Origin: Streptomyces fradiae
GTDB lineage: Bacteria > Actinomycetota > Actinomycetes > Streptomycetales > Streptomycetaceae
Direction: 5' to 3'
Length of the DNA stretch: 64,000 nucleotides
NCBI RefSeq assembly: GCF_041270065.1
Contig: NZ_CP065958.1
Span: 434,001-498,000, forward strand
The translations under genes and the position numbers were made by a program. The notes under the pieces were generated by a model. The model saw nothing but the letters and a program-made list of their open reading frames with translations, was not told where the DNA came from and made no database searches. This document shows, in pieces, positions 50,628-52,682 of this stretch; the stretch's first letter is position 1; each line of letters begins with the position of its first letter.

Positions 50628-52148
50628 TCAGGACCGCAGCGGGGTGCCGAGCTCCTGTACCCACACGGTGCCGTCCGGGCCGGGCACGGCGGCGACGCCG
50701 GTGTGCCGGTAGCGGCAGTCCAGGAGATTGGCCCGGTGCGGCGGGTCGGCCATCCAGTCGGCGACGACGGCCGCCGGACCGCTCTGGCCCCGGGCCAGGT
50801 TCTCCGCCCAGGCGCTCCAGGCGTAGCCCTCGCCGGTGAGGCGGGTGCCGGAATCGGTGCCCTCGGGGTCGGTGTGGGCGAGGTAGCGGCGCTCGGCCAG
50901 GTCCGCGCCGAAGGTGCGGGCCACGGCCGAGAGCCGGCGGTCGATGCGGAGCGGCCCGCAGCCCGCCTCGGCCCGGTGCCGGTTGACCAGTGCGGTGACC
51001 TGCTCCTCCGTGGTCGGGCGCGGTACCCGGGTGCGGGTCGGCGTGGGCGACGGCGTCGGGGGCGGGGTGGTGGCCGGCGGCGGTGCGGCGCTGCGGGTGG
51101 CGGCCGGCGCGGCAGGCGCCGGGGCCGGCGGGCGGGCGACCGCGCGGTCGGCGGGCCCGCTCGGCACCAGCAGGATCAGCGCGGCACCGAGGGCGACGAC
51201 CGCGCCACCGCCGACGAGCAGCCCGGGCCGGACACCGGCCCCGGCGGCAGAACCGGACCCGGACGCCGTCCCGCCTCCGGCCCCTGCTCCAGACTCGGGC
51301 CCGCTCCCGGCCCCGGCCCCCGCCCCCGGCGTCGTCGCCGCGACCGTCTCCAGGGCCGGTCCCCCGCTCCCCCGCCCCGCCCACACCAGGAGCGGCGGCA
51401 CCAGGGCCAGGCCCACCAGCAGGCCCTCGGCCGGGGCGAGGCCGGAGCGGGTGGGGGCGCAGTGCGGGCAGCCGTCGAGGTGCCGGGCCAGGCGTTTGCG
51501 CCACAGCGGGGAGGGCGCGCCGTCCCAGCGGGCGGTGGTGTCGGCGAGGCCCGGGCAGGGCGGCACGGCGGCGAGCGCCCGGACGATGGCGCGCCCGCTC
51601 TCCAGGCGTTCCTTCATCCGCTGGACGCGGACGGCCGCGTGCCGGGGCGGGATGCCGAGGGAGGCGGCGAGCTCGGCGCGGGTCAGCTCGCCGGCGGCCT
51701 CCAGCCACCACAGGGAGAGCACCTCGCGGTCGTCCTCGTCGAGCCAGCGGGTGGCCCGGGCGACCTCGCGGCGCTGGCCGGTCAGGCCGAGGCGCAGGAT
51801 GGCGAGCTCGGTGAAGTCGCCGGCCGGGTCGGCGAGGGCGGCGGCCCGGTCCAGGCCGGGAAGCGGTGCCTGCTGACGTTCGCGCCAGCGGTGCCGTATC
51901 CGGTTCATCGCGATGGCGACCAGCCAGGACCGGAAGCGCGCCGGGTCGCGCAGCGCGGGCAGCCCGTCGAGGGCGCGGACCATGGTCTCCTGGACCAGGT
52001 CGTCGACGTCGGCGTGCCCGTCGAGGGCGCGGCCCACGATGTTGTAGACGAGCGGCAGGAAGGTCCGTACGAGCTCGTCGCCGGCGCGTGCGTCACCCGC
52101 CCGCGCCGCCTCGACGAGTGCGGCGGTGCGGTGCTCGTCGCTCTGCAA
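50628..52148 (-). CDS. ECF sigma factor fused to zinc-finger-like motif, TM region and C-terminal CAP domain
   Basis: This 506-residue protein starts at TTG 52148, with AAGGA close upstream. Sigma-2 spans about 28-92 ('DVDDLVQETMVRALDGLPAL', 'FRSWLVAIAMNRIRHRWRER'). Sigma-4 spans about 133-185 ('LTRAELAASLGIPPRHAAVR'). An anti-sigma-like HxxxCxxC (H223, C227, C230) is followed by hydrophobic segments at 242-258 and 309-329 with a Gly/Ala/Ser loop between. A Pro/Thr linker covers 337-380 and the CAP domain 381-506 ('HTDPEGTDSGTRLTGEGYAW', 'HRANLLDCRY'). It would be a membrane-tethered sigma factor with a built-in sensor. With two membrane helices the CAP domain would be inside; with one, outside. 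Confidence 0.85.
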   Translation of the reverse strand: MQSDEHRTAALVEAARAGDARAGDELVRTFLPLVYNIVGRALDGHADVDDLVQETMVRALDGLPALRDPARFRSWLVAIAMNRIRHRWRERQQAPLPGLDRAAALADPAGDFTELAILRLGLTGQRREVARATRWLDEDDREVLSLWWLEAAGELTRAELAASLGIPPRHAAVRVQRMKERLESGRAIVRALAAVPPCPGLADTTARWDGAPSPLWRKRLARHLDGCPHCAPTRSGLAPAEGLLVGLALVPPLLVWAGRGSGGPALETVAATTPGAGAGAGSGPESGAGAGGGTASGSGSAAGAGVRPGLLVGGGAVVALGAALILLVPSGPADRAVARPPAPAPAAPAATRSAAPPPATTPPPTPSPTPTRTRVPRPTTEEQVTALVNRHRAEAGCGPLRIDRRLSAVARTFGADLAERRYLAHTDPEGTDSGTRLTGEGYAWSAWAENLARGQSGPAAVVADWMADPPHRANLLDCRYRHTGVAAVPGPDGTVWVQELGTPLRS

Positions 52149-52274
52149 TGTCCTTGTGCTCCCTCGTCGCCCGCTGCGTCCCCCGCAGCGGCGGCCGCCG
52201 GATGCGGTCCGCGGTCAGGAGACCGCCGGGAGCGGTCCGGATAACACTTTTCTCGCCCGCGCCCAGGCCCAGGC

Positions 52275-52565
52275 CTATGGCGACAGGTAGGGCAGGGAGG
52301 GCACGGTGGCCCCGCCCCCTTCCCGTACGGCTGCCACGACCGCGTCGTGCAGGTCGCGGCTCTCCTCCTCCGTTCCGCAGGGGACCGGACTGCCCGACAT
52401 GGTGAACCAGTCGGATGCGCCGCTGTACTGCACGGCCACACGTGCCTCGCCGTCGGCATAGGTGGTGTGCACGGTCAGATCGCCCGTGACGACACCGCCC
52501 TCGTCGGTCAGCACCCCGCCACGCCCGGTGTAGACACCGGCGGTCGTCCATGATGCCCAGCTCAT
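52275..52565 (-). CDS. Hypothetical protein (96 aa)
   Basis: This small soluble protein starts at ATG 52565. It is beta-rich at first ('WTTAGVYTGRGGVLTDEGGV', 'LTVHTTYADGEARVAVQYSG') and ends in an amphipathic helix ('ESRDLHDAVVAAVREGG'). The single Cys in 'SPVPCGTEEE' has no partner. There is no signal peptide or known motif. It lies between icd and the sigma-CAP gene, all on the minus strand. The function is unknown. Confidence 0.6.
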   Translation of the reverse strand: MSWASWTTAGVYTGRGGVLTDEGGVVTGDLTVHTTYADGEARVAVQYSGASDWFTMSGSPVPCGTEEESRDLHDAVVAAVREGGGATVPSLPYLSP

Positions 52566-52682
52566 CTGTCCAGACTCACACCGGGGCCGCGGATGCGCCA
52601 CCGACGGGACCGCCCCGGCCGGAAAGCTTCCGGCCGGGGCGAAACCTGTCAGCGCAGGGTCAGCGCGGTGTCACCGCGGGGT

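What the first reader, a model, noticed from the sequence alone, without database searches (positions are those of the whole stretch)
50628..52148. Membrane-tethered ECF sigma factor with its own zinc-finger-like motif and a C-terminal CAP domain
One 506-residue chain contains sigma-2, sigma-4, an anti-sigma-like HxxxCxxC, hydrophobic segments, a Pro/Thr linker and a full CAP (SCP/PR-1) domain. The sigma factor, its inhibitor-like motif and a putative sensor are thus in one molecule. Some ECF groups are known to carry C-terminal membrane extensions; a CAP domain as the sensor is, to my knowledge, little explored. Release might need proteolysis, or the motif may mask the sigma domains until the CAP domain meets a lipid, peptide or metal.
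Basis: partly seen in the sequence, partly recalled or inferred. Interest (0 to 1): 0.85.

Follow-up and report, generated by a model that had tools for sequence, protein, structure and literature searches.

The report
Membrane sigma factor carrying CAP sensor
One Streptomyces protein joins a transcription factor, its own inhibitor motif, a membrane anchor and a CAP domain predicted to lie outside the cell; it belongs to a large family in which the outer domain is swapped and which seems to switch on its own gene and, in relatives, genes for secreted proteins, some with the same outer domain.

Summary
One 506-codon frame encodes sigma-2/sigma-4, an invariant zinc motif (C198, H223, C227, C230), a membrane helix, a Pro/Thr linker and a CAP domain with its conserved residues. 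It is no assembly artefact: of 80 loci fetched from other genomes 65 are closed single frames (63 CAP, 2 AbfB), and this genome has a second copy. The chassis is known in kind (ECF48/52/53; ECF52 SCO4117 is studied). Less expected: (1) the outer domain is exchanged on one chassis (CAP, AbfB, ricin lectin, two glycosidase-like domains, unknowns). (2) A promoter-like motif precedes these sigma genes (GTTATC-N17-TCTCC in 57 of 120, relaxed form in 89 of 120); in this 7.88-Mb genome its core occurs twice, upstream of the two sigma-CAP genes only. (3) In relatives it also precedes secreted-protein genes, including free CAP proteins in five genomes, all with CAP-sigma; in one clade sigma and -35 element differ together. 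Best reading: an autoregulated one-protein surface sensor, probably freed by proteolysis, whose outer domain relates to the proteins it induces. Ligand, protease and transcription are untested. New variant of a known kind.

The parts
50628..52148 (-). sigma-ZAS-TM-CAP gene, 506 aa, TTG start at 52148
   Evidence: Open frame; start position agrees with the six homologues printed; nearest relative L012 keeps the same TTG
51873..52073 (-). sigma-70 region 2 (residues 26-92)
   Evidence: PF04542, E 8.9e-16; models resemble ECF sigma chains such as E. coli sigma-E
51600..51743 (-). sigma region 4 helix-turn-helix (residues about 136-183)
   Evidence: TIGR02937 spans 23-183; Pfam region 4 alone is sub-threshold; helices 138-193 in the model
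51459..51557 (-). ZAS-like zinc motif C198-x24-H223-x3-C227-x2-C230
   Evidence: Invariant in 120/120 and 79/79 sequences; zf-HC2 sub-threshold; segment modelled at pLDDT 83-93
51384..51440 (-). first hydrophobic segment (residues 237-255), conserved, probably not membrane-spanning
   Evidence: Hydropathy, L237, P239, E241, L243, L244, G246 invariant in 20 sequences, low-confidence and not a long helix in the models
51165..51227 (-). trans-membrane helix (about residues 308-328), N-terminus inside
   Evidence: Hydropathy 2.6; in the paralogue's group preceded by net +7 to +11 and followed by -6 to 0 in 119 of 119 usable sequences; in the focal group more positive before than after in 102 of 120, equal in 11 (this protein among them), less in 7
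51015..51158 (-). Pro/Thr-rich linker (residues 331-378)
   Evidence: Sequence; variable in relatives
50652..50993 (-). CAP domain (residues 386-499)
   Evidence: PF00188 E 3e-18; Foldseek: 4ifa E 2e-5, Borrelia BB0689 4d53 TMt 0.77
52218..52245 (-). promoter-like motif GTTATC-N17-TCTCC, 96 nt upstream of the start codon
   Evidence: Conserved in the aligned upstream regions of this gene and 14 A-type relatives; expected 0.02 in the window by chance; only two copies of the GTTAT-N18/19-TCTCC core in the genome
50039..50602 (+). lone secreted-type CAP protein, 187 aa, convergent neighbour
   Evidence: PF00188 E 4e-23; a lone CAP gene lies nearby in 15 of 15 loci labelled CAP_A; its own motif is degenerate here but kept in part of the clade

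Best explanation
A one-protein trans-membrane signalling device. SHOWN (sequence): an ECF-type sigma unit, a C-terminal anti-sigma-like zinc (ZAS) motif, a hydrophobic helix, a Pro/Thr linker and a CAP domain; the outer domain is exchangeable across the family. SHOWN (statistics): a promoter-like motif sits in front of 57 (strict) or 89 (relaxed) of 120 family members examined, one clade has another -35 half, and in this genome the motif core stands only before the two sigma-CAP genes. INFERRED: sigma inside and CAP outside (from charge in relatives); the ZAS segment holds the sigma domains inactive at the membrane; an envelope ligand bound by CAP (or a change in the wall) triggers cutting outside and then in the membrane; the sigma fragment, once its ZAS part is removed, drives its own gene and its paralogue's and, in relatives, genes of free secreted CAP proteins. 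There secreted CAP proteins could mop up the same ligand and switch the system off. In this strain the predicted direct output at the exact motif core is the pair of sigma-CAP genes alone.
For: Domains and invariant residues; structure models; topology by charge; recurrence; outer-domain swaps, e.g. L128 (ricin lectin) and L129 (CAP) on one contig, 62% identical over the first ~380 residues; motif in 57 of 120 (strict) and 89 of 120 (relaxed) dereplicated upstream regions against shuffled means 0 and 0.34; two copies of the core in the own genome, both upstream of sigma-CAP genes, reversed control 0; 2.13 motifs per same-genus genome with the sigma unit (n = 96) against 0.83 without (n = 36), p = 1e-7, reversed control 0.78 and 0.61, p = 0.08; TGTGAC-type -35 in 6 of 6 family-f3 sigma genes of the CAP_c kind (one of them, L126, truncated before its tail) and 0 of 120 regions outside f3 (pattern chosen after seeing them); motif in front of free CAP genes in 5 genomes, all with CAP-sigma; lone CAP near 15 of 15 CAP_A-labelled loci. 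Precedent: ECF52 SCO4117 and proteolysis model (PMC5826349, passages; PMC8999054 section 16).
Against: No expression, ChIP or protease data. The free CAP gene beside the focal gene lacks a good motif, and with two mismatches the window has no more copies than chance (4, expected 4.9). CAP genes are in 101 of 101 genomes of the genus, so most free CAP genes are not known to carry the motif; I saw 6 that do. CAP target versus CAP-sigma alone is p = 0.067, not corrected for relatedness. 56 of 93 motif copies fetched precede none of the recurring gene families. The relaxed motif is absent upstream of 5 of 5 AbfB-type and 18 of 18 f3 sigma genes of L122-L141, and in G124 a 655-aa target has the motif while the AbfB-type sigma typed there does not. 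In 8 of 92 CAP tails conserved His/Glu are lost, so ligand binding need not use them. A profile of the zinc segment alone found no solved anti-sigma. The charge rule gives no answer for this protein itself.
Confidence: 0.62

Rival explanations
1. The CAP part is the output, not a sensor: the sigma half serves only to keep up the amount of a surface CAP protein, so that loss or shedding of the outer domain frees sigma, which makes more of the same protein (self-replacing surface protein).
For: In this genome the exact motif core occurs only before the two sigma-CAP genes, so at this stringency the only predicted product of the regulon is the protein itself and its paralogue.
Against: In relatives the same motif precedes other secreted proteins; binding domains such as AbfB and ricin lectin sit in the same place.
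Confidence: 0.2
2. The motif is the site of another regulator or another sigma factor, and the CAP-sigma acts on different promoters.
For: No binding data; AbfB-type and most sampled f3 sigma genes lack the motif; ECF promoters cannot be assigned with certainty by sequence.
Against: Motif content of genomes follows presence of the sigma unit; in one f3 clade the -35 half differs together with the sigma; two half-sites spaced as in an ECF promoter (the comparison is recalled).
Confidence: 0.15
3. No envelope sensing: the extension is cytoplasmic (two membrane passes bring CAP back inside) and controls sigma by direct contact, as in ECF41/42.
For: Two hydrophobic segments; the charge rule is undecided for the focal protein.
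Against: Strong basic cluster before segment 2 in the paralogue's group (119 of 119), long Pro/Thr linker, CAP cysteine pair kept in 84 of 92 CAP tails, outer domains that are usually extracellular.
Confidence: 0.07
4. Gene fusion of no consequence or assembly artefact.
For: Four of 80 loci show the CAP part in another frame or broken by Ns (L041, L058, L079, L084).
Against: 65 closed single-frame loci, 240 listed proteins of the same build, one of them the window's own, invariant residues in both halves.
Confidence: 0.01

Closest known systems
ECF52 sigma factors (SCO4117, Streptomyces coelicolor)
   Same: Sigma, zinc finger, membrane region, Pro-rich stretch, outer binding domain in one chain; autoregulation and proteolytic release proposed (PMC5826349, passages)
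   Different: Outer domain is a carbohydrate-binding module; the own genome has a separate such gene (L010, NPCBM E 5e-29), only 32% identical over a weak match (E 6e-9); CAP instead here
ECF53 (and ECF48) sigma factors
   Same: C-terminal ZAS plus one or two membrane helices, extension up to 400 residues, Actinobacteria (PMC8999054 section 16); some ECF52/53 are said to carry glycosidase or carbohydrate-binding domains (PMC10766802, one passage), as do sisters of the focal protein
   Different: No passage that I read mentions CAP; the group's model and its named member were not available to test
RsgI anti-sigma/SigI pairs of Clostridium thermocellum
   Same: Outer carbohydrate-binding module, wall-spanning segment, sigma autoregulation, secreted enzymes as targets (PMC4711584, passages); membrane protease RseP cuts RsgI (PMC12203970, start of abstract in the listing)
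   Different: Sigma and anti-sigma are two proteins, of another sigma class
IutY (ECF243, Pseudomonas putida)
   Same: Sigma fused to its membrane anti-sigma, activated by proteolysis (PMC8999054)
   [quoted passage not shown] no CAP mentioned
Bacterial YkwD-type CAP proteins
   Same: CAP domain scores 81 bits to TIGR02909
   Different: Below that family's cut-off (171 bits); fused to sigma

Membership tests
ECF sigma factor | ECF superfamily model over cut-off | tested here: met
   TIGR02937 69.9 bits against cut-off 42.9
Fused ZAS (class I anti-sigma) extension | Cys plus HxxxCxxC zinc motif after sigma-4 | tested here: met
   Invariant 120/120 and 79/79; that this pattern defines ZAS is recalled
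Fused ZAS (class I anti-sigma) extension | Recognisable homology or fold to a known anti-sigma | tested here: inconclusive
   zf-HC2 17.3 bits, cut-off 22.2; no solved structure by profile; best Foldseek hits are sigma chains
ECF52 | Carbohydrate-binding outer domain / closeness to SCO4117-like protein | tested here: not met
   CAP instead; the genome's ECF52-like protein is separate
ECF53 | Group model or closeness to WP_030276194.1 | not testable with these tools
   Model and sequence not held; only the general layout agrees
CAP (PF00188) | Domain model over cut-off | tested here: met
   67.2 bits, cut-off 21.1
Proteolysis-activated membrane sigma | Cut by site-1/site-2 proteases on signal | not testable with these tools
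   Inferred from layout and literature only

The most novel reading that the evidence does not exclude
A family-wide 'mirror code': an actinobacterial sigma chassis whose outer domain is swapped in evolution, and which switches on secreted proteins that share or suit that domain. CAP-sigma drives free CAP proteins (even of the same subtype, G196), GH_cc-type sigma genes stand beside thaumatin-family genes, and a sigma with an undescribed outer domain drives alginate-lyase-like and 655-aa secreted proteins. Free proteins would compete with the sensor for one ligand, giving feedback. It would make CAP a bacterial ligand sensor and give such sigma factors a readable promoter.
Probability: 0.35. 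Interest if true: 0.82.

Novelty: new variant of a known kind. Interest (0 to 1): 0.66.

Why it matters
CAP proteins are widespread yet what they bind in bacteria is largely unknown (general knowledge). A sigma factor that carries a CAP domain as its probable sensor, with a short and almost unique promoter-like motif, turns that into a reporter assay: any condition or ligand that fires the promoter is a lead to what CAP domains recognise. The exchange of CAP with lectin, AbfB and glycosidase-like domains on one chassis suggests an envelope or polysaccharide ligand, and the motif offers predicted regulons for sigma factors that databases mostly name only 'sigma-70 family'.

Tried and rejected
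Assembly error or chance fusion: rejected by recurrence. Two membrane passes: the first hydrophobic segment is not modelled as a long helix and the basic cluster before the second in relatives fits one pass. Motif before the neighbouring free CAP gene: none within two mismatches; the aligned region is degenerate here. Sequence link of the unknown outer domain (L142 type) to its targets: none; no solved structure. Sequence link of the zinc segment to solved anti-sigma factors: none. Literature for a CAP-sigma fusion: none found in ten paper searches (term sets as printed there), in an open-licence library that lacks most subscription papers and, by its DOI as I recall it, the 2021 ECF reclassification. 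The SCO4117-like row used as outgroup in the tree has an overlong branch, so I claim no rooted history.

Limits of the target survey: one search prints only part of its hits, so absence of a target in a genome is not evidence. The stretches to fetch were picked by eye from the printed list; copies directly upstream of a sigma match, and genomes without the unit, were left out; the first two batches were picked for looking promoter-like or lying near a sigma gene, the last three took the remaining listed ones that I found. The motif patterns were written after looking at the sequences.

Full report
WHAT IS THERE. The stated stretch holds one open frame of 506 codons on the minus strand. Pfam gives Sigma70_r2 (26-92) and CAP (386-499) well over cut-off, with sub-threshold zf-HC2 at 206-231 and region 4; the NCBIfam ECF model spans 23-183. 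The TTG start agrees with the starts of six printed homologues and of the nearest relative. Among 120 sequences (the protein and 119 listed homologues), C198, H223, C227, C230 in the zinc segment and C397, H425, H471, C478 in CAP are each 120 of 120; mean sequence entropy is low in sigma-2 and sigma-4 (0.34, 0.41), moderate in CAP (0.81) and high in the loop and linker (2.13, 1.79); E449 is 120 of 120. C198, H223, C227 and C230 are also invariant in 79 of 79 sigma-ZAS units from the window and other genomes.

STRUCTURE AND TOPOLOGY. A model of the whole chain (20-row alignment) has pLDDT 68 and pTM 0.33, so domain placement is not informative, but the domains match: Foldseek finds CAP structures (4ifa; 4d53, TMt 0.77) and ECF sigma chains. 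A model of residues 1-255 (79 rows) has pLDDT 83, with the zinc segment at 83-93; its best PDB matches are sigma chains, most from sigma/anti-sigma complexes. Hydropathy finds two segments. In the paralogue's group the second is preceded by net charge +7 to +11 and followed by -6 to 0 in 119 of 119 sequences (one of 120 lacked the anchor motif); in the focal group before exceeds after in 102 of 120, is equal in 11 (the focal protein among them) and less in 7; in 65 loci 62 exceed and 3 are equal. I read this as one membrane pass at about 308-328, sigma inside and CAP outside; the first segment (237-255) is conserved and may be part of the inhibitor. This topology is inferred.

HOW COMMON. The 120 proteins listed (one the window's own; 3965 matched among 7993 scored) all carry both Pfam domains, as do the 120 listed for the paralogue. 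Over the class it is found in 27 of 197; of the 15 outside the order two are strong (E 3e-113, 4e-95) and 13 weak. CAP itself is in 101 of 101 genomes of the genus. The own genome has the focal gene, a paralogue (55% over the sigma part) at C1:632775-634448, two lone CAP genes, and a separate ECF52-like gene (L010) with an NPCBM domain.

SWAPPED OUTER DOMAINS. I fetched 40 further stretches around paralogues and scanned representatives: the same chassis carries CAP (several subtypes), AbfB, GH99-like, GH catalytic core (PF11790), ricin-type lectin, and two undescribed tails; the rest were typed by BLAST to these. Of 124 typed proteins, 92 have CAP. On a tree of 99 sigma-ZAS units the eight tail types need 10 changes where 7 is the minimum. 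L128 (ricin) and L129 (CAP) lie on one contig and are 62% identical over the first ~380 residues. In 8 of 92 CAP tails one or more of H425, E449, H471 is lost; the cysteine pair is kept in 84 of 92, the exceptions being CAP_c/CAP_e types.

PROMOTER-LIKE MOTIF. Aligned upstream regions of the focal gene and 14 A-type relatives share AAGTGTTATCC...GTCTCC (L013 has GTTGTC and L036 GATCTCC). Over the family, GTTATC-N17-TCTCC is in 57 of 120 dereplicated upstream regions (shuffled mean 0, reverse strand 0), and a relaxed form in 89 of 120 (shuffled mean 0.34, maximum 2; reverse strand 3). In the own genome GTTAT-N18/19-TCTCC occurs exactly twice, upstream of the focal gene and of its paralogue; the reversed control occurs 0 times. 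With two mismatches the window holds 4 copies against 4.9 expected, so weaker sites cannot be called. Over 132 same-genus genomes there are 2.13 copies per genome with the sigma unit (n = 96) and 0.83 without (n = 36), p = 1e-7; the reversed control gives 0.78 and 0.61, p = 0.08. Without the relaxed motif are, among others, the S. griseus-type group, 5 of 5 AbfB-type genes and 18 of 18 f3 genes of L122-L141, although GH_cc-type sigma genes of f3 found through the motif have it (L222, L223, L225, L227). Six f3 sigma genes (five with CAP_c tails, and L126, truncated) have TGTGAC-N17..20-TCT[CG]C instead, against 0 of 120 regions outside f3 (pattern written after seeing them). Such joint change is what a sigma factor and its own promoter should show.

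WHAT ELSE THE MOTIF PRECEDES. Of 93 motif copies in 92 fetched stretches, 7 precede sigma genes of the family, 13 alginate-lyase-like proteins (PF05426 for L201), 10 a 655-aa secreted protein, 6 free CAP proteins, 1 a thaumatin-family protein (PF00314), and 56 none of these. A TTT within 8 nt upstream is present in 31 of the 37 and in 0 of the 56; the A-type sigma genes have an AAA-type context instead. Free CAP targets were seen in 5 genomes, all with a CAP-type sigma (p = 0.067); alginate-lyase-like targets in 13, all with the L142-type tail (p = 8e-8); the 655-aa protein in 10, nine with that tail and one, G124, with AbfB, whose typed sigma gene itself lacks the motif (not corrected for relatedness, lists and typing incomplete). 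In G196 sigma tail and one free CAP are of the same subtype. The thaumatin gene of L218 lies beside a GH_cc sigma gene, and in L138 the frame directly upstream of a GH_cc sigma reads like the end of that thaumatin (by eye). Lone CAP genes lie within the fetched flanks in 20 of 80 loci, including all 15 labelled CAP_A; truncated loci could not be judged. For the neighbour of the focal gene the motif is degenerate; 5 of the 12 aligned A-type lone-CAP upstream regions keep GTGTTA[CT]C followed by GGCTCTCC.

HOW IT MOST LIKELY WORKS. See Best explanation; the steps after anatomy and motif are inference. Compared with known systems it works like ECF52/53 and, in logic, like RsgI/SigI of C. thermocellum, where outer carbohydrate-binding modules control autoregulated sigma factors and secreted enzymes (PMC4711584, passages). 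It fails the outer-domain criterion of ECF52 and could not be tested against ECF53.

VERDICT. New variant of a known kind, interest 0.66.

Noticed in passing
L128 and L129 (one contig of G107): Two sister sigma-ZAS genes about 39 kb apart carry different outer domains, ricin-type lectin and CAP: a recent sensor exchange.
   Followed up: partly
L142 family (L142-L150, L152-L156) tails: An undescribed outer domain of about 175 residues; for L142 no Pfam, NCBIfam or PDB match to the tail.
   Followed up: partly
L207-L209, L211, L213, L214, L231, L233, L234, L238: A 655-aa-type secreted protein (weak, sub-cut-off PATR repeat hit for L207) immediately downstream of the motif in genomes with L142-type or AbfB-type sigma; function unknown.
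   Followed up: partly
L201 and relatives: Alginate-lyase-like proteins with a weak Tat-signal hit and, in L201, a C-terminal LAATG-like sorting end, downstream of the motif.
   Followed up: partly
L138 upstream region; L218: Thaumatin-family genes next to sigma genes with a glycosyl-hydrolase-core tail, in two families (L138 read by eye).
   Followed up: partly
L059, L061, L068, L069, L076, L080 (S. griseus-type group): CAP lacks the conserved His (H471 to R) and the sigma gene lacks the forward motif where tested; GGATAACAAAA upstream looks like the -35 half in reverse.
   Followed up: partly
window 52275-52601, minus strand: A 108-codon frame upstream of the focal gene whose end is conserved beside A-type sigma genes in relatives (alignment).
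   Followed up: no
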